Made by a program: the position numbers and the translations under genes. Source: Oceanipulchritudo coccoides (lineage in GTDB: Bacteria; Verrucomicrobiota; Verrucomicrobiia; Opitutales; Oceanipulchritudinaceae). Taken from it: a stretch of DNA of 64,000 bases. Below are positions 3,542 through 18,019 of the stretch, piece by piece. The notes under the pieces are model-generated. The model saw only the letters and a program-made list of their open reading frames with translations, was not told the origin of the DNA and did no database searches. How positions within the stretch are numbered: the first letter of the stretch is position 1; every line of letters starts with the position of its first letter. The stretch is from contig NZ_JAAGNX010000002.1 of assembly GCF_010500615.1 (NCBI RefSeq), positions 424,990-488,989 on the forward strand, given 5' to 3'.

Positions 3542-3583
3542 GTTTCCCAACCTCAATATTAACAATACATAAATAAAACTACT

Positions 3584-4558
3584 ATGAATACAAAAATCCC
3601 CCTTACTGTGTTATCCTGTGCCTTGGGCGCAGTTTTTGCCCAAGCAGACTGGACTGTTGTCAGCACGTTTGACGATGCCAGCGCACTCGACCTTGTCACT
3701 GATGTCGCGAACATCGAAGGCTCTGAAGCCCGTTCTGAAATTATTGACGGGAAATGGGCCTTGTTCCCGGGTCTCCTCTTTGAGACCAATTCAAACCTGT
3801 ACGGAATGTTGGATCTCGGCACTGACCTGAGGGCTGCCTCGATCGGTGTCGGCGGCGCTGTCACCTTCTATGTGGAAGTGACCCAGCCGATTGTTTCCGA
3901 TGGTGCTGGCGGTACCCGCAAGTCCATTGTCGACGTTACCTGGGGGCTTTCCAACGAACAGCCCGATAATGTTCTCACCACGCGTTATGACTCCTACAAC
4001 GCAATGCAGCGCATTCTCATCACCACCGATAACTTCGAAGGGCGCAACGGCGGCAGCTATGTCACCATCGAGGCGTTTCAGGCAGACGTCAGCTACAAGA
4101 TCTGGTTTGTCGTCGATTTCAACCTGAACTTCTATGAGACCTACATTCAAGGCGGTCAGTGGACGGAGCGGACCAAGCTTGACGCGGGTGATATGTCCGG
4201 AATCTGGTTCTTCCGCTTCAATCCTGGCGAAACGAGTGTAGTGAATCACATGCTTGTTGCCTTGAGCCGCGGTAATTCCGTCCAAGGTGAGAAGAGTCTC
4301 GACCCGGTCTATTTTGATAATGTGGCTGTTGACGTCACCGGCGAGAACCTCACTGCCCCCGACTTTGGTGGCGGCAGCGGAAATACCTGGGCCGGTTATG
4401 CTGTTTCCCCTGAAGGCTGGGTCAATACAGGCGCATGGCTTGGGTTGATTTACGTGAATGAGGCTCCCTTTGTTTATAGTGCCGATCTCGAAACCTACAT
4501 CTATCTTCCCGAAGATCTTGTTGGTGACGCCGGTGCTTGGAGCTACATCTACAAGTAA
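3584..4558 (+). CDS. Secreted protein of unknown function with aromatic C-terminal module
   Basis: A 324-residue exported protein. Residues 1-21 form a signal peptide ending in AVFAQA. The body (about 22-255) is rich in beta-strand patterns such as YFDNVAVDV and looks like a jelly-roll/LamG-type sandwich, although I cannot name the family. A Gly-rich linker (GGGSGN) then leads to a C-terminal module of about 58 residues (WAGYAVSPEGW, WLGLIYV, then a YIYLPEDL segment and a final WSYIYK). The same kind of tail ends the PL6 lyase at 4650 and the serine protease at 16050. It lies 42 bp after the TonB receptor and is followed by a strong terminator, so it probably ends the receptor transcription unit. 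It could be a surface glycan-binding partner of the receptor; this is inference from position. Confidence 0.75.
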   Translation: MNTKIPLTVLSCALGAVFAQADWTVVSTFDDASALDLVTDVANIEGSEARSEIIDGKWALFPGLLFETNSNLYGMLDLGTDLRAASIGVGGAVTFYVEVTQPIVSDGAGGTRKSIVDVTWGLSNEQPDNVLTTRYDSYNAMQRILITTDNFEGRNGGSYVTIEAFQADVSYKIWFVVDFNLNFYETYIQGGQWTERTKLDAGDMSGIWFFRFNPGETSVVNHMLVALSRGNSVQGEKSLDPVYFDNVAVDVTGENLTAPDFGGGSGNTWAGYAVSPEGWVNTGAWLGLIYVNEAPFVYSADLETYIYLPEDLVGDAGAWSYIYK

Positions 4559-4589
4559 TTCCTGCCTCTGGCATCCAGCTGTTTTTCGA

Positions 4590-4621
4590 GGCGGCCCCGG
4601 CGAGCCGGGGCCGCCTTTTTT
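4590..4621 (+). terminator. Rho-independent terminator
   Basis: An 11-bp GC-rich perfect stem (GGCGGCCCCGG pairing with CCGGGGCCGCC) with a CGAG loop is followed by a run of seven T. It sits 31 bp after the stop of the secreted protein and 28 bp before the PL6 lyase start, so the lyase probably has its own promoter or depends on read-through. Confidence 0.9.
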
Positions 4622-4649
4622 CCTCAACAATCCTTAAAATTTTCTACCA

Positions 4650-7600
4650 ATGAAAAAGCTGTCTCGCCAAATTTCCCTTCTTATTGCTTTCTCCAGCCCA
4701 CTCCTGCTTGCCGGACAAAGCACTCTTCTTTCCCTTGACTTTGAGGGAAGCACTCCCGGTCAACAACCGACTGGAGATTGGACATTTTCTCCATCCAGCA
4801 ACACGGGAACAAATGGAGCTGTTGTTGTTAACAGCATAACAACACCGGCCAATCCGCTCACCGGGCAAAGCCTTTATCTTTACGACCAGTCTGGCGGCGC
4901 CAGTACGCATGCGCGCCTGCCGTTAAGCGGTGGTGTGAATGTTTCAGCCGTGCGCGCTTCCTTTTCTTTCCAGAGAATGTACGAGGCATCAGATGCGGAC
5001 ACCCGGGTACACTTCACAGTTGGACCCGCTGGCCTGGCAATGAACAATTCCGACTTTCGACTATTTGAGTTCCGCGCCTACAACAGTGGTGAGATGCGCG
5101 TTGAATACTCGACTGATGGCACCGGTGACAAACGCGGATCCACCGTGGTTGGAACCTACGACACGGACAACCCCAATGAGGCAGTGTTTTTCATCAACTC
5201 ACACGGGACAGAATCGGTTGCCTATGACGACGGAAACCATTCGGGATTACTGCTGCCTAATATGATGGATGTGTATATTAACGCCTCGTTTGTCGGATCT
5301 TTCCTCACTTTGAAAACCCCTGATACGTTAGGGGCTCCCACTGTTGATTATTGGGCAAGTGACGCCGATCTTGGACAGGTTGCCTTCTATCAGGACACAA
5401 GCCGTCAAGGTGGCATTGTTTTTGATGATGTTCTAATCACTGAGCTTGAAATCGGCGGCGGTGGTGGCGGCAGCGGTGAACCCGTTGTCTTTCTTGATCT
5501 TCTGGACTTCGAGGACCAGACACTTGGCGCACAGCCGGTAATCCCTTTCGCGACAATTTTCAGTCCCGGCAGTAACTCTTCGACAAACGGTATTGTTGTT
5601 GTTGATTCAGGAACGACACCTGCCAACCCAATGGATACTGGAAAGGCTCTTTACGCCTACGACATGGTTGGCAGCGCCCCCACACACATGCGTTTTGATT
5701 TTGCCCCGGCCAACACAAGCAATGTCCGCGTTGATTTTGATTTTCAACGGATGTACGACACTGTCATTGATGACGAGGATTCCCGGATCCAGGTCGGGCT
5801 TGCCCCGGCCGGGAAGGAAACAAACAACTCCGATTTCCGGCCCTTCGAAATCCGGATACTCAACAACGGCAACCTTGTCGTGAATTACAACCCCACCGGA
5901 GCTCTTGAAGAAGGCCGTGAATCGGTGATCGTGAGCGAGTACCTGACAACGGGAATTAACCACCTCACCTTTTTTGCCAACGGTAATAATTCTGTTTCAT
6001 TCCCATATGACGATGCCCAGCTTGGGCAGGGCGAAGTCCCTCCAAATACAATGGTCCTGTTTCTCAATGACGTGAAGCTCGGCGAGTATCTCTTCATTAA
6101 CACCCCGGATCCTAATAACGCCGGGACAATCGCCTTCTTTGAAACAACTGATGATTTCGGAAGGTTGGGAATTTATCAGGATACCAGTCGTCAAGGTGGT
6201 ATTGTTTTCGACAATCTTTCCATTCGCGAATTCGCCTCTCTTGAGGCGCCGGAGGCCCCGAGCGGATTGACCGCCCAGGCCACGGGTCCGGATTCCATCC
6301 TTTTGGAGTGGACGGACAACTCCGACGACGAGAGTGGATTTATTATCGAGCTACTTGATGGCGCGTCCTGGATCGAGGCGACTACCGTTGAGGCGGATGT
6401 GATATCCGTTGAACTCACGGGACTCGATTCCGAAACGGAATACACCGCCCGCGTGCTCTCCACAAACGGTTCCATCTCGGAACCAAGTAATGAGGCTTCC
6501 GCTACAACGCTGGCCCAGCTTGTACCAAACATCGCCATGCAACCTGTGGGTGGATCCATTCCCAAGGGAACCAGCATTACCTTGACCGTTTCGGCCACGG
6601 GGCTTGCTCCGCTTTCCTACCAGTGGTACAAGGGGACAAGCGGTGACGTTTCCAATCCTGTTCCAGGGGCGACCGATGTCTCTTTCACAACACCGGTGCT
6701 TATGTCCGCTGCGACATACTGGGTGCGCGTCAGCAACGCAAACGGATCGGATGATTCCGTCACAGCCGAGGTCGAAGTGTTCGACCCTCGGATTATCCGG
6801 GTGGTCAACCTGACCCAGCTCAATGCGCTGCTTCCCGATGCGTTGCCGGGTGACACCTATGTTCTTGATAATGGAACCTATCCTAATGCGCATATTGTTT
6901 TCAGCGGACAGGGAACAGCCAACGCGCCGATCACCTTGAAGGCGGAGACACCGGGAAAGGTTATCCTTACCAATGATTCCTCCCTTGAAGTCGGCGGAAG
7001 CTGGATGGTTGTCGACGGGCTTCTCTTCACTAATGGGTGGAACCAGACCCGGGACTTTGTTATCAGCTTCAGGGCCGGCAGCTCCAATCCAGCTAAAAAC
7101 TGCCGGGTGACCAATTGCGCCATCATTGATTTCAGCCCGCCCAATCCTGAAACAGACCGTGACTGGATTGCCCTCTATGGCACAGACAACACCTTTGACC
7201 ACAATCTCATCTCGGGCCACAGCTCTCTCGGGGTCACTCTCGTCGTCTGGCGTTCGCCCGGAAAGGAAGACCGTCACCGGATCGCGTACAATCACTTCCG
7301 CAACCGCCCAAGTGGTGGTGGCGAGAATGGATGGGAGACCATCCGTATCGGAACCAGCTCCGATTCCTTGAGCTCCTCGAAGTGTATCGTGGAGTATAAT
7401 CTCTTTGAGGCCTGCAACGGTGAAATTGAGACGATCTCCAATAAGTCGGGCGAGAACATCTATCGCTACAACACCTTCTGGCGAAACCAGGGAATGCTGA
7501 CCCTGCGCCACGGGAACCAGTGCCTTGTCGAGGGGAACATGTTCCTTGGCGAGGGTGTTTCCAATACGGGGGGAATCCGTGTCATCGGCGAGGACCATGT

Positions 7601-8516
7601 AGTGGTGAATAACTACTTCGAACGCACCACCGGGCGAGACGGCGCTGCTATCACGGTTTATGCCGGTGTCCCCAACTCGCCCCTGAACGAGTATTTCCCG
7701 GCAAACAATGCGCTGATCGCACATAATTCGATCATTGACGTTGTGGGGACCCATATTTCTGTCGGGGCTGGCTATCCATCAAGAGACCGCACGGTCCTGC
7801 CAATAGGAGTTGTTGTCGATAACAACCTCTTTGCCAAATGGGCCACAACAACGTTCAGCTATAACGGCCCCGCGATCAGCGGAGAAGCGGCACCCACCGC
7901 CGCCTATGCCGGGAATATTGTTTCCGGGGTGACGCTCGGGGATGTTGCCGCTTCTTCCGGTGCAACAATTGTTACCGTGCCATATGTAACAGGTGCTTAC
8001 GGGCTCCTGCGCCCGCAGGCGGGAAGTCCTGTTGTCGATGCCTCGGTCGGCTCGGACCTCGATCTGGATCTTGACGGACAGGCGCGCGACAGCTCGCCCG
8101 ACGTCGGCGCCGACGAGCTGGTGAACCTTCCGGGCCTCAATGTCGGCGGCCCGATCCAGCCGTTGGAATCCGGACCCGCATGGCGTGAAAGTATCGATAC
8201 ATCCCCGCCATGGAGGGGACCAGCCCTCAAGTCCGGGCGGTTGATAGATTCGCCCACGTACGGGATGTTCAATATCGTCAACGCCGAGTGGATTTACCAT
8301 CGCGCTTACGGCTGGCTCTACATCAAGGCCATCACGACGACCGAAAGCATGTGGTTCTGGAGCGCTTCCGAGGACGGATGGCTGTGGTCCTCGCGTGACT
8401 GCTATCCGTTCTTCTTCGATCCACAACGCGATGCCTGGATCTACTATGATCCGGCGGCTGGAGCAGGCATCTTCATCTATAACAGCCAGCAGGCGGCCTG
8501 GGAGAAAGCCATCTGA
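4650..8516 (+). CDS. Multidomain PL6-family polysaccharide lyase (alginate lyase / chondroitinase-B type)
   Basis: A 1288-residue secreted lyase that should cleave uronate-containing glycans by beta-elimination. Order of domains: signal peptide (1-22); two homologous sandwich domains of about 220 residues (roughly 24-260 and 283-525) joined by a poly-Gly linker; Fn3 (about 530-618); Ig-like (about 624-710); PL6 parallel beta-helix (about 713-1155); aromatic C-terminal module (about 1200-1288). The PL6 catalytic pair is visible: Lys932 in SNKSGEN and Arg953-His954 in LTLRHGN. Their 21-residue spacing matches Lys250/Arg271 of chondroitinase B and the equivalent pair in alginate lyases. PL6 enzymes act on alginate or dermatan sulfate; the sequence alone does not decide which. 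It is far longer than a simple PL6 enzyme (about 450-750 residues). It lies between a terminator and the beta-helix gene at 8539 in the receptor locus. Confidence 0.88.
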   Translation: MKKLSRQISLLIAFSSPLLLAGQSTLLSLDFEGSTPGQQPTGDWTFSPSSNTGTNGAVVVNSITTPANPLTGQSLYLYDQSGGASTHARLPLSGGVNVSAVRASFSFQRMYEASDADTRVHFTVGPAGLAMNNSDFRLFEFRAYNSGEMRVEYSTDGTGDKRGSTVVGTYDTDNPNEAVFFINSHGTESVAYDDGNHSGLLLPNMMDVYINASFVGSFLTLKTPDTLGAPTVDYWASDADLGQVAFYQDTSRQGGIVFDDVLITELEIGGGGGGSGEPVVFLDLLDFEDQTLGAQPVIPFATIFSPGSNSSTNGIVVVDSGTTPANPMDTGKALYAYDMVGSAPTHMRFDFAPANTSNVRVDFDFQRMYDTVIDDEDSRIQVGLAPAGKETNNSDFRPFEIRILNNGNLVVNYNPTGALEEGRESVIVSEYLTTGINHLTFFANGNNSVSFPYDDAQLGQGEVPPNTMVLFLNDVKLGEYLFINTPDPNNAGTIAFFETTDDFGRLGIYQDTSRQGGIVFDNLSIREFASLEAPEAPSGLTAQATGPDSILLEWTDNSDDESGFIIELLDGASWIEATTVEADVISVELTGLDSETEYTARVLSTNGSISEPSNEASATTLAQLVPNIAMQPVGGSIPKGTSITLTVSATGLAPLSYQWYKGTSGDVSNPVPGATDVSFTTPVLMSAATYWVRVSNANGSDDSVTAEVEVFDPRIIRVVNLTQLNALLPDALPGDTYVLDNGTYPNAHIVFSGQGTANAPITLKAETPGKVILTNDSSLEVGGSWMVVDGLLFTNGWNQTRDFVISFRAGSSNPAKNCRVTNCAIIDFSPPNPETDRDWIALYGTDNTFDHNLISGHSSLGVTLVVWRSPGKEDRHRIAYNHFRNRPSGGGENGWETIRIGTSSDSLSSSKCIVEYNLFEACNGEIETISNKSGENIYRYNTFWRNQGMLTLRHGNQCLVEGNMFLGEGVSNTGGIRVIGEDHVVVNNYFERTTGRDGAAITVYAGVPNSPLNEYFPANNALIAHNSIIDVVGTHISVGAGYPSRDRTVLPIGVVVDNNLFAKWATTTFSYNGPAISGEAAPTAAYAGNIVSGVTLGDVAASSGATIVTVPYVTGAYGLLRPQAGSPVVDASVGSDLDLDLDGQARDSSPDVGADELVNLPGLNVGGPIQPLESGPAWRESIDTSPPWRGPALKSGRLIDSPTYGMFNIVNAEWIYHRAYGWLYIKAITTTESMWFWSASEDGWLWSSRDCYPFFFDPQRDAWIYYDPAAGAGIFIYNSQQAAWEKAI
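4719..6222 (+). repeat. Tandem duplicated N-terminal domain within the PL6 lyase gene
   Basis: Two consecutive coding segments (about 4719-5450 and 5490-6222) encode clearly homologous domains. Shared landmarks in order are LDFEGSTPGQQP / LDFEDQTLGAQP, TTPANPLTGQSLYLYD / TTPANPMDTGKALYAYD, FSFQRMYE / FDFQRMYD, NNSDFRLFEFR / NNSDFRPFEIR and YQDTSRQGGIVFD in both. They diverge enough at DNA level that this is an old duplication. The fold is probably a carbohydrate-binding-like beta sandwich, by inference. Confidence 0.85.
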
Positions 8517-8538
8517 TTGTATTTATGATTCTGCTACA

Positions 8539-10260
8539 ATGAAACGTTTCCTGATTTTCCGCCGGGCGGGTGCGGGAGTATTCCTGCTATCCGCTTGTGC
8601 GGCGGGGGCCACTGTTACCGGGTTGGAGGCGATCGCTGCTCCAGGTGGCAGCATTTTCCTTCGCTGGGAAGATGTCACCGACAGTGAAACCGGTTTCCTT
8701 GTGGAGCGTAAGTCCGGGGACGGAGCTTTCGAGACAGTGATCACCACGCCACCGGACAATACGGCTTACACGGATACCGGCCTCCTTCCCGACACCGCTT
8801 ACACGTATCGCGTCCAGGCGCTTGTCACGGGCGATCCCCAAGCGAGTGAAGTTTCTGCTACAACCCTATCCCAATGGAGTGTTCCCAAGGCGGAGCCGGC
8901 AATGACATTCACAGGCTCCGATTCCTACTCATTTGGATTCCAAGGTGGTGGTGCGACCTACACGGTGGAGGAATCTTCTGATCTGGATACGTGGTCGCCG
9001 ACCGGTTCTCCGGTCTACCTTGAAGAGTCAGAAAGCTTTGAACTCAGTAAATCCCTGAGCGCGGGTAACCGGTTTTTCCGCGTGAGTACGCGAGCTTACG
9101 AGCGTCCGACAACGATCGGACTATCAGAGCCCTTTCAAACACCTCCGGAACCGGATGGCGAAGTGTGGGATGTCACGCAATTCGGTGCCTCGCCAAGCAA
9201 CATCTCGCCGACCAACGACGACGCCGTCGGGATCAAGGTCGCCATCAGCGTGGCACAACCGGGCGACATCATCTTCATTCCCGCAGGAACCTACACCCTC
9301 CGGCAGGAGCTGCAGATTCCCACCGGGCTGACGCTGCGCGGTGCGGGCAAGGACCAGACGATCCTTGTCACGGAAGGGATCAACCGGGCGGTATACGTTG
9401 GTCCTCGTGCCAACAACATTCGCATCGAGGACTTTGCCATCACGTATTTGGGATCGACTGAAGAGCTCGCGTTCGGGGTCTATGTTGGCAGTTCACGAAC
9501 TGGCCTGAACAGCTACCGCATCCTCATTGACAACCTGCGGATCGAGAAATTCTCCATCCACGGAGTCTCCCTGCGTGATAGCAACCACGTGCTTGTCCAG
9601 AATTGTGAGATCCTCAACGCCACAAATCTGGGCGGCGGGGGCCGTGGTTATGGGATCGCCCTCAATTATCCGACAAACAACAATAATTGGATCCGGCACA
9701 ACACGATCGGACCCGTGATCCGGCACGCCATCCTGGTTCAGTACTTTTCCCATAACAACTTGATTGAGCACAACCTCGCGGTGGACAACTCCGAGGATGC
9801 CTACGACCTCCACGGGGAGGACGAATATGCCAACGAGTTACGGTACAACACCGCATCAGGGGGAGACCGCGACGGATTTGGTGTCGGGAACACTGGTTCT
9901 ACACACGATCGCAGCGGCCCGAATAACTGGATCCATCACAATACCGTCGAGAATGCAGCTGTCTCAGGCATAGAAGTGATCCAGGGCTCCGATGTGGTTT
10001 ACATTGACGAGAACACTTTCTCCGGATGCCGCTACGGAATCCGTGTGCATGACATCGGCGGCGATCACATCTACATCCGGGGAAATACCGTTCAGGACAA
10101 TAATACCGGCATTTCCGTGACGAGTTCCCGTTGGGTCTGGATGCTCGACAACCGTATTGAGGATAATACGTCCTATGGAGTTGAAATTTTCAATGATGTG
10201 GACGACCTCGTCGACCAGGGAAATATTTTCTCCGGGAATGCCGTGGATTACCGGCCCTGA
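8539..10260 (+). CDS. Secreted Fn3 / right-handed parallel beta-helix protein, putative polysaccharide-active enzyme
   Basis: A 573-residue exported protein. I place the start at the ATG at 8539, which gives a Lys/Arg N-terminus and hydrophobic signal peptide (MKRFLIFRRAGAGVF then LLSACAAGA); the frame is open further upstream, but that part overlaps the lyase gene. Residues about 24-112 form an Fn3 domain. From about 207 a pectate-lyase-like beta-helix begins (VWDVTQFGASP, GDIIFIPAGTYTL, GLTLRGAGKDQTI), then repeated Asn-rich coils to the end. Residues 423-428 read DLHGED within an AYDLHGEDEYANELRYN stretch, the kind of His/Asp/Glu cluster seen at active sites of beta-helix lyases and epimerases. 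It is 22 bp downstream of the PL6 lyase and probably acts on the same glycan. It could be a lyase, a C5-epimerase or a glycosidase; I cannot decide. Confidence 0.75.
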   Translation: MKRFLIFRRAGAGVFLLSACAAGATVTGLEAIAAPGGSIFLRWEDVTDSETGFLVERKSGDGAFETVITTPPDNTAYTDTGLLPDTAYTYRVQALVTGDPQASEVSATTLSQWSVPKAEPAMTFTGSDSYSFGFQGGGATYTVEESSDLDTWSPTGSPVYLEESESFELSKSLSAGNRFFRVSTRAYERPTTIGLSEPFQTPPEPDGEVWDVTQFGASPSNISPTNDDAVGIKVAISVAQPGDIIFIPAGTYTLRQELQIPTGLTLRGAGKDQTILVTEGINRAVYVGPRANNIRIEDFAITYLGSTEELAFGVYVGSSRTGLNSYRILIDNLRIEKFSIHGVSLRDSNHVLVQNCEILNATNLGGGGRGYGIALNYPTNNNNWIRHNTIGPVIRHAILVQYFSHNNLIEHNLAVDNSEDAYDLHGEDEYANELRYNTASGGDRDGFGVGNTGSTHDRSGPNNWIHHNTVENAAVSGIEVIQGSDVVYIDENTFSGCRYGIRVHDIGGDHIYIRGNTVQDNNTGISVTSSRWVWMLDNRIEDNTSYGVEIFNDVDDLVDQGNIFSGNAVDYRP

Positions 10261-10371
10261 ACTCCCCTTTGTGCGGTTTTCTTTCCTTTGTGATTGCCAT
10301 GTCACCTCCTTCGAGTTTCTGCTGGACTCCCGTTGGCGGGCGATGCCTCCAACCGCAACGGAGTGCACTAT

Positions 10372-11988
10372 ATGGCTGATAAAAAACGCATTAAACACAT
10401 TTTTGTAACAGGAGGCGTTGTCTCCTCCTTAGGCAAGGGCCTGACCGCCGCCGCCCTTGGGGCGCTGCTTGAGCAGAGAGGCCTGAAGATCAAGCTGCAG
10501 AAGTTTGATCCCTATCTGAACGTCGATCCCGGGACGATGAACCCGTTCCAACACGGCGAGGTGTATGTGCTCGATGACGGCTCCGAGACGGACCTCGATC
10601 TCGGGCACTACGAACGCTTCACCAGCGGCAATCTCAGCTATGACAACAACCTGACTTCCGGCCAGATCTACGATACCATCCTGAAGAAAGAGCGGCGGGG
10701 CGATTTTCTTGGCCAGACCATCCAGGTCATTCCTCACGTCACCAACGAGATCCAGTCCCGCTTTGAGGCGAATGCCGTCGACGAGGACATTATTATCACC
10801 GAGATCGGGGGGACTGTGGGCGACATCGAAGGCTTGCCCTTCCTTGAGGCAATGCGCCAGTTCAGCCTGGAGCGTGATGCCGGCGAAGTGATGTTTCTCC
10901 ATGTGACATTGCTTCCGTATTTGAATGCAGCCGGTGAGCTCAAGACCAAGCCGACCCAGCAGAGCGTGGCCCGCTTGCGTGAAATCGGAATCATGCCGGA
11001 CGCGCTTGTCTGCCGGACGGAAAAGACCATGGGTCGTGACCTTCGCCAGAAGCTGAGCCTTTTTTGTAATGTGCGCGAATCCGCGGTCATTGAGGAAAAG
11101 GATGTTGAGACCTCCATCTATGAGGTGCCTCTGATGCTTGAGAACGAAGGACTGGACAAGCTCGTCCTCAAGTTTTTCGGCCTTGATCACCTTCCACAGT
11201 TGGAAAACGGCTGGGACAAAGTTGTGCGCATCCTGCGCTATCCAAAACATCGCGTCGACGTGGCGGTCGTCGGGAAGTATATTGAGCTGCAGGATGCCTA
11301 CAAAAGCGTCTATGAAAGCCTCGTCCACGGAGGCATCGCCAACGATTGTGCGGTTGAGATCCATCGGCTGGATTCCGAGAAGCTTGAAGAGTCGGGCAAT
11401 TACGAAGCCTTGCACGGTGTTGATGCCATCCTTGTTCCCGGCGGTTTTGGGTCCCGTGGCATTGAAGGCAAAATTGAGGCGGTCCGGATCGCCCGTGAGA
11501 GTGGCATTCCCTATTTTGGATTGTGCCTCGGGATGCAGGTGGCGGTGATTGAATTTGCCCGAAATGTGGCTGGCCTTGAAGGAGCCCATAGTTCGGAATT
11601 CAATGAAAAGACCCCGTTCCCGGTCATCGACCTGATGCCGGAGCAAAAAGGCGTCACAGACAAGGGGGCAACCATGCGCCTCGGTGCCTATCCCTGCAAA
11701 TTGAAGGACGGGACGATCAGCGCCAAGGCTTACAAGGAAGACTTGATCAGTGAACGGCACCGACACCGTTTTGAATTCAACAACGATTACCAGGAGCAAC
11801 TCGAGTCGGCTGGCCTTGTCATTGCGGGGATGAATCCCGACCGCAACCTCGTCGAAATAGTCGAGAATCCCGAACATCCCTGGTTTGTCGGGGTACAATT
11901 CCATCCGGAATTCCAGAGCAAGCCACGCAAGGCGCATCCGCTCTTTGCCGACTTTATCGCCGCCGCACTTTCACGTCAGAATACTTGA
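10372..11988 (+). CDS. pyrG: CTP synthase
   Basis: Converts UTP to CTP using glutamine and ATP. At 538 residues it is close to the E. coli enzyme (about 545). The synthetase half opens with [13 protein letters not shown] and contains [15 protein letters not shown] and [10 protein letters not shown]. The C-terminal class I glutamine amidotransferase shows GLCLGMQ with nucleophile Cys385, and the QFHPE His-Glu pair near the end. The ATG at 10372 is chosen because [11 protein letters not shown] is the normal N-terminus; an upstream in-frame ATG would add 26 non-conserved residues. kdsA follows after 2 bp, a common arrangement linking CTP supply with CMP-Kdo formation. Confidence 0.97.
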
Positions 11989-11990
11989 GC

Positions 11991-12791
11991 ATGTTCCAGA
12001 GAAACCCAGATAAGTTCCTCCTGATCGCCGGGCCCTGTGCCCTCGAATCCCATGAACTTTGCCGTACCGTGGCATCCCTTCTCCGCGAGATATGGTCTGC
12101 CCACGAGGAGATTGAAGTGGTTTTCAAGGGATCATTCGACAAGGCCAACCGGACATCCCTCGATTCCCCGCGCGGCCCCGGTCTCGAAAAGGGCCTTGAG
12201 ATATTGAAGATGATCCAGGAGGAGTTCGCCCTTCCGATCCTGACGGATGTTCACACGGAAGCCCAGGCTACCGAGGCCGGGAAGATTGTGGATATCCTCC
12301 AGATCCCCGCCTTTCTGTGCCGCCAGACGGACTTGCTCGTCGCGGCAGCCCGCACCGGAGCCATCGTCAACGTGAAGAAGGGACAATTCCTGAGCCCTCA
12401 GGAAATGCGCTATGTCGTGAACAAACTGGAGGGATCGGATGCCCGTGAAATCTGGCTCACCGAACGCGGGACGACTTTTGGCTACCAGAACCTTGTCGTC
12501 GATATGCGCAATTTCGACATTCTCAAAACCTACGGCCATCCAGTCATCTTTGATGCCACGCACAGTGTGCAAATGCCGGGAGCCGGTGACGGCACAACCT
12601 CCGGCAAGCGGGAATTTGTCCCACCGCTCTCACGCGCCGCTGTTGCCGCTGGAGCGGACGGCTTGTTTGTCGAGACGCATCCGGATCCGGATCAAGCGAT
12701 TTCCGATGGCCCGAATCAGATACCGCTCAACCAACTGGCTGCTGTCGTCGAGCCCGTCATAGCCATCTGGAAGACCCTCCGCGGTCTTTAG
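11991..12791 (+). CDS. kdsA: 3-deoxy-8-phosphooctulonate synthase (Kdo-8-phosphate synthase)
   Basis: Condenses phosphoenolpyruvate with arabinose 5-phosphate to give Kdo-8-phosphate, the precursor of Kdo in the LPS inner core. The 266-residue sequence has the family landmarks GPCALES near the N-terminus, KGSFDKANRTS, ILTDVH, QIPAFLCRQTDLL, VKKGQFLSP and DATHSVQMPG, and the ETHPDPDQA segment near the end. The ATG at 11991 is two bases after the pyrG stop; a TTG six bases earlier would overlap pyrG. Its presence is the best evidence in the window for a Kdo-containing outer membrane. Confidence 0.95.
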   Translation: MFQRNPDKFLLIAGPCALESHELCRTVASLLREIWSAHEEIEVVFKGSFDKANRTSLDSPRGPGLEKGLEILKMIQEEFALPILTDVHTEAQATEAGKIVDILQIPAFLCRQTDLLVAAARTGAIVNVKKGQFLSPQEMRYVVNKLEGSDAREIWLTERGTTFGYQNLVVDMRNFDILKTYGHPVIFDATHSVQMPGAGDGTTSGKREFVPPLSRAAVAAGADGLFVETHPDPDQAISDGPNQIPLNQLAAVVEPVIAIWKTLRGL

Positions 12792-12798
12792 CCAACAG

Positions 12799-12831
12799 CG
12801 GGTGACCTTCCGGGTAGAGCCCTCTCACCCG
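12799..12831. terminator. Possible hairpin between convergent kdsA and symporter genes
   Basis: An inverted repeat (CGGGTGA pairing with TCACCCG, with an inner GGG/CCC stem around TAGAG) fills most of the 45-bp gap between two convergent genes. There is no clear T-run on either side, so it is a weak terminator candidate. Confidence 0.3.
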
Positions 12832-12836
12832 TCCTG

Positions 12837-14633
12837 TCAGATCGTCGGAGTCTCTTTTGATGCCTCATTGGCCTCATCCCGTTTCCGGTGAATCTTCGAG
12901 GCACGGTAAAGAAGGCCTCCAACAGCCACAATCAGCAACCCGCAGAACATGAAGGCAAACCTTCCGCCAAGTGGATTAGGGATGACCATGCCGAGAACGG
13001 TGATGAAGCCGCCGTATGTGAAGCAGAGTTTTCCAAGTATCCGGGCCTGCATCTGGTCGGAGTCGACACCACCTTCCCCACTGTGGTCGACGGGGCGGTT
13101 CATGCGGTCAAAGAGATCCTCCACTGCCGGATGTACCTTCGCCTTCATGCGCTTCGCTATCCAGATGGTGCAGAAAAACCAGATTGAGCAGATGATGATA
13201 TTTCCAAGTCCACTTGTGATAAACAGAAAGTCAGAGACTTCACGGTTTGTCAGGTCGGTGTAGCCAAACCATGCTGGATCAAGGGCCAATTTCACAAAGG
13301 CCGAGAACGTAAATCCCACGACAAGGCTGCTCCAGGCGGCCCACCGCGGGGCACCCTTGAAAAAGATGCCCCAGACCAATGGCATCGCGTACGGGATCGC
13401 GATCAAGGATCCAAACAGGATCATGATTTCAAACAGGTTGAAATCCTTGATGGAACGGATGGCCAGCGCGGACAGGATGATCATAAACCCAAACAGCGCC
13501 GAGGCAATTTTTCCAGCAACCAGAAGCTCCTTGGCCGAGGCCGCCTTGCGCAGGATGGGCTGGTAGAAGTTCTTGATAATGATGCCCGCATTCCGGTTCA
13601 AGCCGGAGTCCATTGAGGATATTGTCGCCGCAAACAGCGCGCAGAGCAGGAGCCCGAGCATGCCCACCGGCATCAGCTCCAGACCGATGAAGACAAACGC
13701 TCCCTCATAGGCCTTGTCGCCTAGATTGGGGAAGACCGAGGTCAAGTCAGGCTGGATGATCCGTGCGGCCATCGGTGGAATGAACCAGATGAAGGGACCA
13801 ATGAACATCAGTGCCGAGGCCATCAAGGCCGCTTTGCGCGCCTGCTTGTCATCCTTTACGCAAAGATAACGGTACGCGTCGAACATGTTGTTCAGCTTGA
13901 ATGACTGGATCACAAAAGCCGCGAATATCCATATGTACACAAAAGTCGCATCCTCAGCTTCCCAGAATTTGAAATGGCTCGCCGGAAGTTTTTCCACAAA
14001 TCCGGTAATTCCGCCCACTTCTGGATGACCAAGGGCTAAAACACAGGCGACTACCGTGATGCTCATCAAGAGTACAGTCTGCATGAAGTCCGAAGCAACA
14101 ATGGCCCAAGAACCTCCAATGACCGACATGAACACCACGACAAAGCCGACAATCCAGATTGTCAGGTTCGGTGGAATGTTGAAGAATCCAGCCGCGATAA
14201 TCGCCAGACCATTCAGCCAGATGCCCGCGTAAACCACGCTCATGGGAACCTGTAGCCACGTGAAGACCTGCTCGTTTGTCCGGCCGTAACGGTCGCGGAC
14301 GCCTTCGATTGCCGTGATGTTGCGCATCCGGCGGAATTTGTAACTGGTGAACAGGTAATTGCAGAAGTATCCCAGTGCGTTCCCAAAGAAAATTGCCGCC
14401 ACCAGAATACCATCGGTATAGGCTTTTCCGGCCGCTCCCGTGAAGGTCCATGCACTGAACTGCGTCATGAAGGCACTCGCCCCGACCAACCACCAGAGCA
14501 TGCTTCCCCCCGCGCGAAAATAGTCGCTCGCGTCCTTGCTGAAGGCCCGGAAGATCACTCCCAGGCTGAGCTGAAAGCCAAAATAAAAGACAATGACCAG
14601 TAAGTCCCAGGATTCTAGATTAGTACCAAACAT
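12837..14633 (-). CDS. Sodium:solute symporter (SSS family)
   Basis: A 598-residue inner-membrane secondary transporter with about a dozen hydrophobic helices from residue 7 onward (LVIVFYFGFQLSLGVIF) to the C-terminal IVAVGGLLY segment. SSS landmarks include YFRAGGSMLWWLVGASAFMTQFSAWTF near the first helices, the GSWAIVASDFMQTVLLMSI region, and ATISSMDSGLNRNAGI in the sodium-site region. Substrates of this family include sugars, amino acids, organic acids and vitamins; nothing here fixes one, but the neighbouring lyase locus makes a monosaccharide or uronate plausible. The gene stands alone, and its upstream region carries two near-identical palindromes at 14661 and 14932 that look like operators. 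Confidence 0.9.
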   Translation of the reverse strand: MFGTNLESWDLLVIVFYFGFQLSLGVIFRAFSKDASDYFRAGGSMLWWLVGASAFMTQFSAWTFTGAAGKAYTDGILVAAIFFGNALGYFCNYLFTSYKFRRMRNITAIEGVRDRYGRTNEQVFTWLQVPMSVVYAGIWLNGLAIIAAGFFNIPPNLTIWIVGFVVVFMSVIGGSWAIVASDFMQTVLLMSITVVACVLALGHPEVGGITGFVEKLPASHFKFWEAEDATFVYIWIFAAFVIQSFKLNNMFDAYRYLCVKDDKQARKAALMASALMFIGPFIWFIPPMAARIIQPDLTSVFPNLGDKAYEGAFVFIGLELMPVGMLGLLLCALFAATISSMDSGLNRNAGIIIKNFYQPILRKAASAKELLVAGKIASALFGFMIILSALAIRSIKDFNLFEIMILFGSLIAIPYAMPLVWGIFFKGAPRWAAWSSLVVGFTFSAFVKLALDPAWFGYTDLTNREVSDFLFITSGLGNIIICSIWFFCTIWIAKRMKAKVHPAVEDLFDRMNRPVDHSGEGGVDSDQMQARILGKLCFTYGGFITVLGMVIPNPLGGRFAFMFCGLLIVAVGGLLYRASKIHRKRDEANEASKETPTI

Positions 14634-14660
14634 ATGCGGGGTGTGGGGGGTAAAGTGTTA

Positions 14661-14680
14661 TGGTTAATAATTATTAACCA
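14661..14680. promoter_or_regulatory. Perfect 20-bp palindrome, putative operator
   Basis: TGGTTAATAATTATTAACCA is its own reverse complement. Its near edge is 27 bp upstream of the symporter start codon, where it would overlap a -10 element or transcription start, a typical place for a dimeric repressor site. A second copy with one mismatch lies 271 bp further upstream. Confidence 0.6.
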
Positions 14681-14931
14681 GAGCTTTGCCCAATGTGGAG
14701 TGGGGGTGCAAGCTAAAAGGGTTGGCCGAGCTATTGGTAAACGGTGTCTGATCCTCAGGGATTGACTGAAGCGATAACCTTTTAGAAGCGTTTTTTTCCG
14801 GCGGGAGGCGGCCCGGACACCGCCAACGAGCAAAGAAATCCAACACTTCCGGAGCCGGAGCGATCGAGATTGATGACGATGTCGGTTCCCTGTACCGGGG
14901 CAACAGGGATTGAATCCCCGTAAAACAGACT

Positions 14932-14950
14932 TGGATAATAATTATTAACC
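14932..14950. promoter_or_regulatory. Second copy of the palindrome, putative operator
   Basis: TGGATAATAATTATTAACC matches the site at 14661 with a single change (A for T at the fourth base) over 19 bases. Two such sites upstream of one gene suggest cooperative binding or DNA looping; the regulator is not in the window. Confidence 0.55.
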
Positions 14951-14984
14951 CCCGCATCGGGTGCTTGCTGAGGGAAAAGGGAAA

Positions 14985-15004
14985 TTCCCCGAATCTCTGG
15001 GGAA
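14985..15004 (-). terminator. Hairpin immediately after the HD-protein gene
   Basis: On the minus strand, TTCCCC pairs with GGGGAA around an 8-nt loop one base after the stop codon, followed by TTTCCCTTTT. The stem is short, so this is only a possible terminator. Confidence 0.35.
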
Positions 15005-15005
15005 A

Positions 15006-15977
15006 TCAGGCTGGATACTGTGGTTTGCGCACGAGAAGCGGGGCGCCCAGGCCGGCGACATAATCGGAAAAGTCCTGATTTTCGGGAGTTGAGCGAAGCG
15101 CGTATTGGACCATTCCCATTTTGGCATCGAGATTATCGACCATTGAAACAAAGACCGCTTCAGGGGTGGCGGCTTTCACGGCGGCCCCCCATTCAAGCTC
15201 GCCCTGGTGGGAGAGGATAATGTGTTCAAGGCGGTCGAGCAGATCCTCGCTGAGACCGGCCTTGATGGCGGCACGGCGGGTCTGACGGTAGCCGAGAACG
15301 ACGTGGCCGTGAAGGTGTCCCAGCCGGCTCTTGGTGGTGGCAAGATCGCCAGTGTATTCAAGGGCTTTACCCAGATCGTGCAGGATGACACCCGCGAGGG
15401 CCAGATCGGGGTCAACTTCATCGTAAAGCGGTAGGAGGCTGACGCAGGCCCGGCACATGCGGACCGTGTGCTCCATAAGGCCGGAGCGGTAGGCATGGTG
15501 CATGGAAATGGCACCGGGGATGGTTTTGAATTCCTTTTCCAACTCGGACAGGGCGGAGTTGACCGTCTCCTTCAGGGGAGCGTGGTTGATTTTCGCGATG
15601 AAGCCCTGCAATTCCGTCCATAGTTCCTTGACCGGTATCGGGGCGCACTCAACCAGACGGTCGAGGTACCGCTGAACCTCTGATTCGTGGACCTTCTCGA
15701 TATGGGTAATGCTTGGGGAAAACCGGTTTTGGTAGTAATCGGTTGATCCCTGAACGCGGTAAATTGTCCCCTCAACAGCATTCAGGAAGAGCTGGTAATG
15801 CGATGAGTTACCAAAGCAAATGTAGTGAAAAACGCCTGACTTGTCCCCGAATTCAACCATGAGAAACTCGGAATCATTCCGGGCTTTCCGGATCGAGGAT
15901 TTGCGAAGGACCACGACCGCCTCATAAGGGACCTTCTGGTCCTTCGGGAGTTCTTTCAGTTCGGCTACGGTATTCAT
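15006..15977 (-). CDS. HD-domain 3'-5' exoribonuclease, YhaM-like
   Basis: A 323-residue cytoplasmic protein with an N-terminal OB-fold-like nucleic-acid-binding domain (about 10-100, including MVEFGDKSGVFHYICFG) and a C-terminal HD metal-dependent hydrolase domain. HD landmarks are the SMHHAYRSGLMEHT histidines, VILHDLGKA with the His-Asp pair, HIILSHQGE and the distal VSMVDNLDAKMG Asp. This is the YhaM architecture, known for 3'-5' exoribonuclease activity in Firmicutes; the biochemical role here is inferred. The start chosen (MNTVAEL) drops 12 upstream residues that do not resemble the family. It lies downstream of the protease gene with a 72-bp gap. Confidence 0.8.
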   Translation of the reverse strand: MNTVAELKELPKDQKVPYEAVVVLRKSSIRKARNDSEFLMVEFGDKSGVFHYICFGNSSHYQLFLNAVEGTIYRVQGSTDYYQNRFSPSITHIEKVHESEVQRYLDRLVECAPIPVKELWTELQGFIAKINHAPLKETVNSALSELEKEFKTIPGAISMHHAYRSGLMEHTVRMCRACVSLLPLYDEVDPDLALAGVILHDLGKALEYTGDLATTKSRLGHLHGHVVLGYRQTRRAAIKAGLSEDLLDRLEHIILSHQGELEWGAAVKAATPEAVFVSMVDNLDAKMGMVQYALRSTPENQDFSDYVAGLGAPLLVRKPQYPA

Positions 15978-16049
15978 AGTGCCGATGGGAACGCCAAGGG
16001 CGGAACAGGGCAACGGTTTTCGCCACCTGAATAGAGGTAGTTGGCTATA

Positions 16050-17987
16050 CTAATTCACCCGGACCGGGATACTGAGCTCTTGATCATAGAACCACAACCG
16101 TTCCCCGAAGTCCCCGGATGACTCAAAGTAGAAGAGCCAGACCCCCCGGTTGATATGATAGACATAGGGGAAGACTGCCGAATTAGTGTAGAGGTCGCCC
16201 AACTCTGGCAGAATACTGTGGAAGTAGAGGTCTTCCCCGTTGCCAGGCCTCAAATAGAGCCAGCCCAGTTCTGAGTGACTCACCCACGGGGTGCCGGTTG
16301 CCACATAGGGACCGAACCAGGTTGAACTATGCCACCCGGGATCTTCCATGGCAAAGCCACCCTGAACCGGATAGGGGTTGGCCGGGTCCGGCGTCCAAAG
16401 CAAAGAATCAAGGAAAGCGGTATCCTCTCCCTCGGTAGAGTAGGGGTCTTTCTCATAGATCCATTCGATAGTATGGGCTCCTGCGGGAAGCACCATCTGT
16501 CGAGCTGTTGGACCGATGAATCCAGACAGGAAAACAGGAGTTTGACCCTCCATAACCGGATTCCCGTTTAGATGCAGATAGACGGCGTCATATATTTCAC
16601 CGAAAGTAGGCCCTGGCGTGTTGTACTCCTGGTTGACCTCACTCGAAACACTCCATGAGAAATCAAGGGTACCGGGGCCAATAATGTCCAGACGGAGTGA
16701 GGATTGTCCAAGGGAGCGAACCTTACCTGCCCTTAACCGGTTTCCATCATCGACAAACCAGTTGCTGTCACCCTCGGTAACAAATCCAAGCCAAGGTTGG
16801 TCAAAGTGAGTGGCGGCCACCGTACTGCGACCTGTGGTTACAACGGTGACAGGCTTGCTTTTAGGCGTCAGGGCGGAACCGGTCCCGATTGTCTGCACCT
16901 TGTAGCGGTAGACTTGTCCGGGAATAATATTCACGTCGCCGTAGGCTTCGCGGTCAGCCGGTACGGTTGCGATTGCCTCCCAAAATCCGCCATCCAGCCG
17001 GTAGATTTTATATCCCGTTTCTCCTTCAGAATTATCCTCCCACTGAAGGAGAATCGTCGTGCTGGATGTTTGCTCAGCGGTGAGATTGGTGACTCTTCGA
17101 AGATCGCTGGTTCCACGGGCGACAATCGATTCTTCAATCCACTGCCAGGCGTTTTCATCGATGCCCCGTATAAGGACCCCCGTGCTGCCCACGCTCCCGA
17201 CGACAACACCGGCAACAACCCAGGCATTTTCATCATCCCTGACATAAATTGGGCCACCGCTGTTCCCTGAGTGGGTGTTCACATTTTCAAATCCATATGT
17301 GGCGACCCAGAAGTTTTCACTATCCCGCCAGGTGTCGTCAGGCCGGCTTTCCAATCCGCTCCAGAATGAAAAGTAGTCTCCGGGTTCGGTCCGGTGCATG
17401 AGGCCGATATTGCTTTCAGGGATGAAATCGGTATCCGCCGGGTAGCCGACGATCATTTTCTCCCGGTTGTCCCGGAGAATACTTACTGTTTCCTCGGCAT
17501 CCACATGTACTTCGGGAAATGATCTCAACGAAGCCAGTTTGATAAAGGGGCTGATATACCCTGCCGCAAAATCGATATTGAAGGTATCCGGGGAGCTCAG
17601 GCCTATCCCGCTGGGGTCATTTTCTACACGGGTTGCGTATGAGGTCCAACGAGAGAACGCCTCTGGCTTGAAGGAACCGGTCAGTACGGGCGATCCGTTG
17701 GGCGTGTGGCGCTGTGGATAATAAGAGATCGCATTGGAGGGTTCCCAGACGAGATTCACATCATCGAAAATTACGTGTGCAGCTGTCACGATGACACCGT
17801 TTTCCACCATGGAGGCACTGCCGCTGGCAAACCCGTTTGTGCTCCCCACACCCAGATAGCCGTTGTAGGAGTATGGCTTCTCTGTGGTTTGGGAAAGGTC
17901 CAGCACCTCGGGAAGGATAGTCGTTTGACCCAGCAGTGCGGATAAGGAGCCTAAAAATAGTATAAACGTACCAGGGAGGTTTCTCAT
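16050..17987 (-). CDS. Secreted trypsin-like serine protease with Fn3 and aromatic C-terminal module
   Basis: A 645-residue exported protein. The ATG at 17987 gives a clean signal peptide (MRNLPGTFILFLGSLSALLG); a TTG 36 bp upstream is possible but would overlap the dxs stop. The S1-type catalytic triad is visible: His71 in VTAAHV, probable Asp139 in NIDFAAG and Ser243 in HSGNSGGP. An Fn3 domain follows (about 292-380, LLQWEDNSEGETGYKIYRL), then a beta-rich domain resembling carbohydrate-binding sandwiches (about 395-530). The last 90 residues (SELGWLYLRPGNGEDLYF, FPYVYHINRGVWLFYF) are the same type of aromatic tail found in the secreted proteins at 3584 and 4650. It probably acts outside the cell or at the surface. 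Confidence 0.82.
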   Translation of the reverse strand: MRNLPGTFILFLGSLSALLGQTTILPEVLDLSQTTEKPYSYNGYLGVGSTNGFASGSASMVENGVIVTAAHVIFDDVNLVWEPSNAISYYPQRHTPNGSPVLTGSFKPEAFSRWTSYATRVENDPSGIGLSSPDTFNIDFAAGYISPFIKLASLRSFPEVHVDAEETVSILRDNREKMIVGYPADTDFIPESNIGLMHRTEPGDYFSFWSGLESRPDDTWRDSENFWVATYGFENVNTHSGNSGGPIYVRDDENAWVVAGVVVGSVGSTGVLIRGIDENAWQWIEESIVARGTSDLRRVTNLTAEQTSSTTILLQWEDNSEGETGYKIYRLDGGFWEAIATVPADREAYGDVNIIPGQVYRYKVQTIGTGSALTPKSKPVTVVTTGRSTVAATHFDQPWLGFVTEGDSNWFVDDGNRLRAGKVRSLGQSSLRLDIIGPGTLDFSWSVSSEVNQEYNTPGPTFGEIYDAVYLHLNGNPVMEGQTPVFLSGFIGPTARQMVLPAGAHTIEWIYEKDPYSTEGEDTAFLDSLLWTPDPANPYPVQGGFAMEDPGWHSSTWFGPYVATGTPWVSHSELGWLYLRPGNGEDLYFHSILPELGDLYTNSAVFPYVYHINRGVWLFYFESSGDFGERLWFYDQELSIPVRVN

Positions 17988-18019
17988 GGGGGTGTTTGTC
18001 AGCAATTTACGGATTTTGT

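What the first reader, a model, noticed from the sequence alone, without database searches (positions are those of the whole stretch)
4384..17987. Unrecognised aromatic C-terminal module shared by three different secreted proteins
The secreted protein at 3584 (module about 4384-4555), the PL6 lyase (about 8241-8513) and the serine protease (minus strand, about 16053-16330) all end in a 55-95 residue tail built from W/Y-rich units: a Trp-containing entry, a LGWLY-like core (WLGLIYV, AYGWLYI, SELGWLYL), a middle aromatic segment and a final Y/F-rich W-x-Y strand. Their upstream domains are unrelated. I do not know a named family for it. Shared tails on diverse exported proteins often act as sorting, surface-anchoring or glycan-binding signals.
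Basis: partly seen in the sequence, partly recalled or inferred. Interest (0 to 1): 0.6.

Follow-up and report, generated by a model that had tools for sequence, protein, structure and literature searches.

The report
Shared aromatic module on secreted proteins
About 70 different proteins of this bacterium, nearly all of them apparently exported, carry the same small tryptophan-rich module that the domain libraries searched do not name; it is probably a reusable docking tag that keeps secreted proteins near the cell, and a rare version on an intracellular sulfate-adding enzyme hints that it may recognise a sugar polymer or lipid made by the cell itself.

Summary
The three tails belong to two related, unnamed module types: S (~56 aa; window 4385-4555) and L (~85 aa, 3-4 aromatic hairpin units; 8244-8504 and 16071-16337 minus). 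Regions fetched around hits hold 70 module proteins (38 S, 32 L). S and L share a core (hhalign 94.5%, score 37.2; best of 200 column shuffles 14.4). NCBIfam gives nothing better than 0.19; Pfam gives marginal matches (OCRE, Kelch). L occurs in 53 of 177 genomes of the order, S mainly in one family. It is not a strict C-terminal signal: 63 of 70 are C-terminal, 4 follow the signal peptide, others are internal or tandem. Cargo is very diverse; 11 genomes with at least 10 L copies show no PEP-CTERM. One member looks cytosolic: an Stf0-type sulfotransferase near a polysaccharide locus with Wzm/Wzt; 5 of 7 Stf0 matches in the family carry L. Best reading: a position-independent, non-covalent binding module that retains exported proteins at the envelope. 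The ligand is unproven; the cell's own glycan or glycolipid is my lead. A confident S model has no clear structural match; the closest weak one is OCRE.

The parts
3584..4558 (+). Apparently exported protein (324 aa, no Pfam match) that carries an S module; N-terminus MNTKIPLTVLSCALGAVFAQA looks like a signal peptide
   Evidence: ORF; 0 Pfam families at E<=1; signal-peptide heuristic
4385..4555 (+). S module, 57 aa, last residues before the stop
   Evidence: 79.7 bits to the S profile, which includes it; AlphaFold2 model mean pLDDT 89.8; 40 places in the genome with this query at E<=0.1
4650..8516 (+). Apparently exported PL6-type lyase (Chondroitinas_B PF14592, fn3, Ig_7) with an L module at its end
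   Evidence: PF14592 E 6.5e-89, fn3 1.8e-8, Ig_7 1.7e-7; signal-peptide heuristic
8244..8504 (+). L module of the PL6-type lyase
   Evidence: 86.1 bits to the L profile, which includes it; alone it finds 14 other places in the genome at E<=0.001
16050..18023 (-). Apparently exported trypsin-like serine protease with fn3 and an L module at its end
   Evidence: fn3 5.9e-6, Trypsin 8.8e-4 (19.6 bits, under its cut-off of 20.6); signal-peptide heuristic
16071..16337 (-). L module of the serine protease
   Evidence: 80.7 bits to the L profile, which includes it; found with the PL6 tail alone at E 8.9e-5

Best explanation
S and L are two versions of one small beta-hairpin domain family whose strands alternate aromatic and aliphatic residues. 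Nearly all carriers look exported by Sec (from their N-termini). The domain binds, non-covalently through its aromatic face (inferred), a ligand common to the cell envelope or matrix, so that diverse enzymes, proteases, cytochromes and isomerases are kept near the producing cell. Because it occurs at either end, inside proteins and in tandem, it is more likely a binding domain than a processed sorting signal (shown: the positions; inferred: the function). The ligand I think most likely is a glycan or glycolipid that the cell makes itself: the one carrier that looks cytosolic is an Stf0-type sulfotransferase near a surface-polysaccharide locus with Wzm/Wzt, a kind of system where the polymer is built in the cytoplasm before export (established knowledge; its application here is inference, resting on one locus plus a three-gene cassette seen in two genera).
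For: 70 distinct module proteins in the fetched own-genome regions. Diverse partners: GH16 in five proteins, GH10, GH76, GH88, PL6-type lyase, CBM6/35/96, subtilase, MtrC-like cytochromes, endonuclease I, cyclophilin, CAP, LRR (each lists only its first 25 families, of 39 and 27). Signal-peptide-like start in 60 of 69 by the stricter rule against 44 of 81 neighbouring ORFs (p 1.5e-5). Positions: 63 of 70 C-terminal, 4 right after the signal peptide, 3 other; internal and tandem copies elsewhere, for example between thioredoxin-like and DUF3179 domains. Almost no Cys, and K+R only 1.8% in S, so no sign of lipidation or of a basic membrane anchor. Alternating aromatic/aliphatic strands and a confident, mainly beta S model. 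L does not need PEP-CTERM: 18 of 53 L genomes show no PEP-CTERM match, 11 of them with at least 10 L copies. Stf0 clue: 5 of 7 Stf0 matches in the family carry L; the own gene lies in a run with ABC2_membrane, an ABC ATPase with Wzt_C, a methyltransferase and glycosyltransferases; the order serine palmitoyltransferase - 229 aa protein - Stf0-L is shared with G295.
Against: No ligand or localisation data exist here. S is acidic (K+R 1.8%, D+E 12.3%), which speaks against a polyanionic sulfated ligand unless cations bridge it. Two of 7 Stf0 proteins (both in G291) lack L. Wzm/Wzt near Stf0-L was seen in one genome only; the other contigs were short or showed other neighbours. C-terminal placement is strongly preferred (63 of 70), as a sorting signal would also give. 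The signal-peptide rules are home-made and weak: the loose one passes 63 of 70 module proteins but also 58 of 105 background ORFs, and nine module proteins fail the stricter one.
Confidence: 0.45

Rival explanations
1. It is a carbohydrate-binding module for environmental substrates (algal polysaccharides) that targets enzymes to food.
For: Several partners are polysaccharide-active: GH16 in five proteins, GH10, GH76, GH88, PL6-type, CBM6/35/96. The aromatic face resembles CBM platforms (columns; the resemblance is recalled).
Against: Equally found on cytochromes, endonuclease I, cyclophilin, CAP, LRR, thioredoxin-like/DUF3179 and sulfotransferase proteins; one sequence family on so many unrelated activities fits one shared ligand better than many substrates.
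Confidence: 0.2
2. It is a C-terminal outer-membrane export or sorting signal that works like the CTD of the type IX secretion system, with an unknown translocon.
For: 63 of 70 own-genome copies are C-terminal; 23 of 28 S proteins from other genomes reach to within 8 aa of the stop; tens of copies per genome, diverse cargo, restricted lineage in the phylum samples.
Against: N-terminal, internal and tandem copies; presence on a seemingly cytosolic enzyme. SprA_N was not found in the genome, but the control genomes were silent too, so that is inconclusive.
Confidence: 0.15
3. It is a protein-protein docking domain that grips proline-rich or other extended peptides on a scaffold, working like the eukaryotic OCRE domain.
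For: The only chain at Z>=2 for the S model by VIA-align is OCRE of RBM10 (2mxw, Z 2.9, rmsd 3.2, 47 residues). OCRE PF17780 matches one L module at 8e-6, above its cut-off, and others weakly. OCRE is a mainly negative sheet with an exposed tyrosine array that binds poly-proline helices (passages of PMC5127646), and S is acidic and aromatic.
Against: Z 2.9 is far below a trustworthy level; no Pfam family reached E<=0.001 when the protein with the best OCRE match was scanned whole; a Kelch model also passes its cut-off on another L module, so composition may drive both. No scaffold protein was identified or sought.
Confidence: 0.13
4. It is a folding aid or self-association tail without a dedicated ligand.
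For: Small, aromatic, usually terminal; nothing here tests oligomerisation.
Against: Tandem copies and conserved alternating surfaces fit ligand binding better.
Confidence: 0.07

Closest known systems
Type IX secretion CTD (Bacteroidota)
   Same: Small beta domain at the end of many unrelated exported proteins, restricted to one lineage (PMC4804311: title and start of abstract in the listings; the cargo diversity is recalled)
   Different: That abstract describes a C-terminal domain cleaved off by PorU; S and L also occur N-terminal, internal and in tandem, and matched no CTD model in Pfam or NCBIfam
PEP-CTERM (PF07589) / exosortase
   Same: A terminal tag on many exported proteins; 107 of 177 genomes of the order have it
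   Different: S/L do not match PF07589 and S has few basic residues; none of the 13 own-genome PEP-CTERM places coincides with a module place; 18 of 53 L genomes show no PEP-CTERM match
OCRE domain (PF17780)
   Same: Aromatic beta-hairpin repeats; weak structural match and one sequence match above cut-off
   Different: OCRE is described for nuclear splicing factors (PMC5127646 passages); homology is not shown
Choline-binding and other wall-anchoring repeats (SLH domains and the like are recalled)
   Same: Would work alike: non-covalent surface retention by aromatic hairpins. The S profile finds 7pl5 (putative endo-beta-N-acetylglucosaminidase, hairpin repeats) at E 0.037
   Different: No Pfam match to such repeats; 7pl2, the choline-binding module of LytB, is only rank 19, E 9.4, TM 0.28 for the S model; the host is not Gram-positive
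Wzt C-terminal domain (PF14524)
   Same: A glycan-reading domain in an O-antigen type ABC exporter (function recalled); such a protein is the third gene downstream of the own Stf0-L gene
   Different: Unrelated sequence as far as Pfam shows; S/L are mostly on exported proteins

Membership tests
Type IX secretion CTD | Always the C-terminal part of the protein | tested here: not met
   4 of 70 own-genome copies follow the signal peptide, 3 lie elsewhere; 7 of 30 loci hold an L more than 250 residues from the stop, one of them an own-genome protein and two of them near-identical; 5 of 28 S proteins in other genomes are not C-terminal
Type IX secretion CTD | Match to a described CTD model in Pfam or NCBIfam | tested here: not met
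   No CTD model at E<=1 for 17 L and 25 S members; that the libraries hold such models is recalled
Type IX secretion CTD | Genome encodes the T9SS translocon | tested here: inconclusive
   SprA_N PF14349: 0 in the own genome, but also 0 in all 14 controls
PEP-CTERM | PF07589 match (PEP motif, membrane helix, basic end) | tested here: not met
   13 PF07589 places in the genome, none coinciding with a module place; 17 L and 25 S members do not match it at E<=1
PEP-CTERM | Depends on exosortase; found only with it | tested here: inconclusive
   11 genomes with at least 10 L copies show no PEP-CTERM match; exosortase itself was not searched, and 42 of the 177 genomes miss the completeness and contamination bar
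OCRE | PF17780 over its gathering score | tested here: inconclusive
   1 of 17 L rows over the cut-off (26.2 against 24.7 bits); best of 25 S rows 0.088; no family at E<=0.001 in the whole protein
OCRE | Twisted six-stranded antiparallel sheet | tested here: inconclusive
   S model against 2mxw: Z 2.9, rmsd 3.2, 47 aligned; L model poor, pLDDT 53.7
OCRE | Binds poly-proline helices | not testable with these tools
   Needs a binding assay
Choline-binding repeats | Match to the Pfam wall-binding repeat models | tested here: not met
   None at E<=1 among 17 L and 25 S members
Choline-binding repeats | Beta-solenoid of hairpins | tested here: inconclusive
   7pl2 rank 19, E 9.4, TM 0.28
Carbohydrate-binding module | Binds a carbohydrate | not testable with these tools
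   Only partner domains and an aromatic face argue for it

The most novel reading that the evidence does not exclude
S and L read a polymer or lipid that the cell makes itself. The same reader is fused to the cytosolic sulfotransferase that decorates the molecule and to about 70 mostly exported proteins that are then held on it: a non-covalent counterpart, in a bacterium with an outer membrane, of choline-binding or SLH anchoring, used by a large part of one bacterial order.
Probability: 0.25. Interest if true: 0.82.

Novelty: new variant of a known kind. Interest (0 to 1): 0.6.

Why it matters
How environmental Verrucomicrobiota keep dozens of degradative enzymes near the cell is open, as far as I know. 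An unnamed module on about 70 proteins of one genome, present in 53 of 177 genomes of the order, gives a marker for the surface proteome and one domain to test. If the ligand is the cell's own glycan or glycolipid, it links a biosynthetic locus to a large part of a secretome. It also deserves two domain-library entries (S and L).

Tried and rejected
Rejected: chance similarity (single-sequence E-values; column-shuffle control). Rejected: one uniform C-terminal signal. Considered and left open: OCRE, choline-binding and T9SS-like readings (see rivals). Internal repeat test on L: units 1/2, 1/3 and 3/4 exceed all 60 shuffles, but 2/3 (2 of 60 shuffles reach it) and 1/4 (1 of 60) do not, so not every pair of hairpins is demonstrably alike.

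Led nowhere: PDB profile searches (L best E 0.25, S best 0.037); Foldseek in PDB and in viral models, none at E<=0.001; L structure prediction from three sequences was poor; an L consensus in viral contigs and one L module against plasmids and phages gave no match; SprA_N control silent. Literature: nine searches. Six aimed at a description of such a module; their listings, 10 to 20 papers each, showed none, but some queries were met by thousands of papers (4,932,816) of which I saw only the top. Two were on sulfated glycans and fucoidan-degrading relatives, one on OCRE. Most papers of subscription journals are not in that library, and InterPro and CDD were not searched.

The L and PEP-CTERM tallies were copied by hand and assume that searches drew the same 177 genomes; of the 11 L-rich genomes without PEP-CTERM, five are printed with 0 and six are inferred from their absence from its list of 107. 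Module counts in the own genome come from regions fetched around hits, not from an annotated proteome; start codons were guessed. The 20 regions were picked by hand from the list, partly because a long frame or two matches in one frame caught my eye, so the share of tandem and internal S is not a fair sample, and one of its 28 proteins is a weak match (22.3 bits). Of the seven S matches outside the family only G442 (5.5e-20) is strong; the rest (4e-5 or so and weaker) may be L cross-matches.
Full report
CHECK OF THE OBSERVATION. The window is G000:C2:424990-488989 of a 3.52 Mb, 52-contig genome. The three ORFs exist as described: 3584-4558 +, 4650-8516 + and 16050-18023 -. Searched alone, the PL6 tail finds 15 places in the genome at E<=0.001, itself included, with the protease tail at 8.9e-5. 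The tail of the first protein finds 40 places at E<=0.1. An alignment of six own-genome L tails finds 33 at E<=0.01, the six included. The window itself holds only the three copies.

TWO TYPES, ONE FAMILY. Iterated profiles on fetched regions give 70 distinct proteins, 38 best described by S and 32 by L (weakest best score 29.6 bits). Consensus S: tWaGypv..dGwVDTGdWLGwlyV..dPWvYS.dLg.WiYlPE..v.e.GaWaYvp. Consensus L: gW..spWFG.F.d.g.pWIYH.eHGWLY..g...es.WfyD.eLGWlWTs...YPflYs...g.WLyY..gs..pRwFYDyat..W. (65 S and 43 L sequences). The S core aligns with the first part of L at 94.5% probability, score 37.2, 36 columns; 200 column-shuffled S profiles reach at most 14.4, and the reversed profile 15.5. 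A smaller comparison had given 67.5%. Several L copies match only to profile position 62-64 of 79, so L seems to come with three or four hairpins. Hairpin units 1/2, 1/3 and 3/4 resemble each other beyond 60 shuffles; 2/3 and 1/4 do not.

NAMES IN LIBRARIES. NCBIfam gives one chance-level match for 17 L members (0.19) and one for 25 S members (0.2), and none for the three window tails scanned alone. Pfam: OCRE matches 2 of 17 L rows at E<=1, best 8e-6, the one row over the cut-off, and 1 of 25 S rows at 0.088 (another S row gives a phage antitermination model at 0.0066); one other L row passes a Kelch cut-off. The best OCRE row came from L115, whose whole protein gave no Pfam family at E<=0.001, so I treat these as weak. 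PDB profile searches: L best 0.25, S best 0.037 to 7pl5, a protein of hairpin repeats named putative endo-beta-N-acetylglucosaminidase.

STRUCTURE. The S model, predicted from the window sequence and four relatives, has mean pLDDT 89.8, four strands of three or more residues and one short helical turn. Foldseek finds no PDB match at E<=0.001, nor a viral model. Of the 59 chains re-aligned, one reaches Z 2: OCRE of RBM10, Z 2.9, rmsd 3.2 over 47 residues, below the level the tool calls trustworthy. The L model, from three sequences, is poor (pLDDT 53.7, nine strands). In the alignment, strands alternate aromatic and aliphatic columns: in S W29 (100% aromatic), 30 (95% aliphatic), Y31 (97% aromatic), then 38 to 41 (98% aromatic, 94% aliphatic, 91% aromatic, 91% aliphatic) and 52 to 55 (100%, 71%, 98%, 83%); L shows the same in its first two hairpins. 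S is acidic (K+R 1.8%, D+E 12.3%) and nearly free of Cys (0.1%).

POSITION AND EXPORT. In the own genome 37 S and 26 L copies end within 20 residues of the stop, 4 L copies lie directly behind the signal peptide, and 3 lie elsewhere. Of the 30 L loci taken from the order search (29 of other genomes), 7 hold an L more than 250 residues from the stop, one of them the own-genome protein and two near-identical. In the other genomes sampled for S, 23 of 28 S proteins end within 8 residues of S; five do not, and several have two copies (the sample was partly hand-picked and one of the 28 is weak). L lies between thioredoxin-like and DUF3179 domains, between DUF3108-like and Big_7 domains, and N-terminal of a cyclophilin/FKBP protein. 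A loose rule finds signal peptides in 63 of 70, but also in 58 of 105 background ORFs, so it discriminates little. A stricter rule gives 60 of 69 against 44 of 81 (p 1.5e-5). Of the seven N-termini that failed the loose rule, five look to my eye like signal peptides, one is cut off, and one has none: the Stf0-type sulfotransferase.

CARGO. Pfam partners are very diverse: GH16 in five proteins, GH10, GH76, GH88, chondroitinase B/PL6 type, CBM6, CBM35, CBM96, subtilase, prolyl oligopeptidase family, MtrC/MtrF-like and other cytochromes, endonuclease I, cyclophilin, CAP, LRR, RCC1, FGE-type and others (32 and 38 proteins, first 25 of 39 and of 27 families shown).

DISTRIBUTION. L: 9 of 387 genomes drawn from the phylum (7 of the same order, the own genome included) and 53 of 177 of the order, 26 of 76 genera. 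S: 4 of 288 of the phylum, all in the window's family, 16 of 17 genomes of that family and 21 of 177 of the order, 14 of them of that family. Related MAGs are titled 'uncultured Opitutales bacterium' and 'Verrucomicrobia bacterium'. PEP-CTERM: 107 of 177. L and PEP-CTERM are not associated (35 both, 18 L only, 72 PEP only, 52 neither; p 0.40); 11 genomes with at least 10 L copies show no PEP-CTERM match (see limits). So L does not seem to ride on the exosortase system.

THE CYTOSOLIC EXCEPTION. The Stf0 protein (PF09037 E 2.4e-22) starts with MKSIIICATPRSGSYLL, without a signal peptide, and ends in L, 20 residues before the stop (81.6 bits). Among 17 genomes of the family there are 7 Stf0 matches in 5 genomes; five carry L and the two of G291 do not. 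The own gene follows, in a run, a Glycos_transf_1 protein, a serine palmitoyltransferase homologue (1.3e-89 to 3a2b) and a 229-aa protein. After one further gene come an ABC-2 permease, an ABC ATPase with a Wzt_C domain, a methyltransferase and further ORFs that I read by eye as glycosyltransferases. Serine palmitoyltransferase, the 229-aa protein and Stf0-L stand in the same order in G295, of another genus (72%, 43% over 143 residues, and 38.5% identity). On another G295 contig Stf0-L is next to a GT2; in G293 and G294 none of the neighbours queried was found. In ABC-exporter systems the polymer is completed in the cytoplasm (established knowledge), so a cytosolic reader domain makes sense there; a sphingolipid substrate is as possible.

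A sulfated, glycosaminoglycan-like exopolymer and putative sulfotransferase genes have been reported in other Verrucomicrobiota (Pontiella; abstract and passages of PMC7356697), so a sulfated own polymer is not far-fetched. A search of that paper's main text for C-terminal, anchor, sorting and PEP-CTERM gave no occurrence.

MECHANISM AND VERDICT. Shown: family, two types, copy number, positions, diverse and mostly exported-looking cargo, occurrence without PEP-CTERM, fusion to Stf0. Inferred: a binding function, retention at the envelope, the ligand. The acidity of S and the lack of any ligand data are the main weaknesses. It is an undescribed domain family as far as Pfam, NCBIfam and the six literature searches with that aim go, acting probably like known surface-binding modules.

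Noticed in passing
window 8395-10260 +: The gene next to the PL6 lyase also looks exported (by eye fn3-like plus beta-helix) but shows no S or L module, so neighbouring secreted proteins are not all tagged.
   Followed up: partly
L036 / G000:C3:783645-783857 - and G000:C2:1011628-1011834 +: Two own-genome L matches contain an in-frame TGA: either decayed copies or three-hairpin versions with a chance extension.
   Followed up: no
L191:8101-11541 + and L195:617-4118 -: Conserved cassette serine palmitoyltransferase - 229-aa protein - Stf0 sulfotransferase with L; suggests a sulfated sphingolipid or glycolipid pathway.
   Followed up: partly
Stf0-L proteins, region between Stf0 and L (L191 protein about residues 245-395): An unassigned region of about 150 residues, which by eye looks like a beta-sandwich, lies between the sulfotransferase and the module in all five; not identified.
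   Followed up: no
L198 (G000:C2:380400-400000), 192-9595: Run of ORFs that by eye look like GT2/GT4 and other polysaccharide genes, ending before what looks like gatB.
   Followed up: partly
G023 and G114: L modules in two families of the phylum outside the order (7 and 1 matches, best 3.0e-10 and 2.5e-17): transfer or older origin.
   Followed up: no
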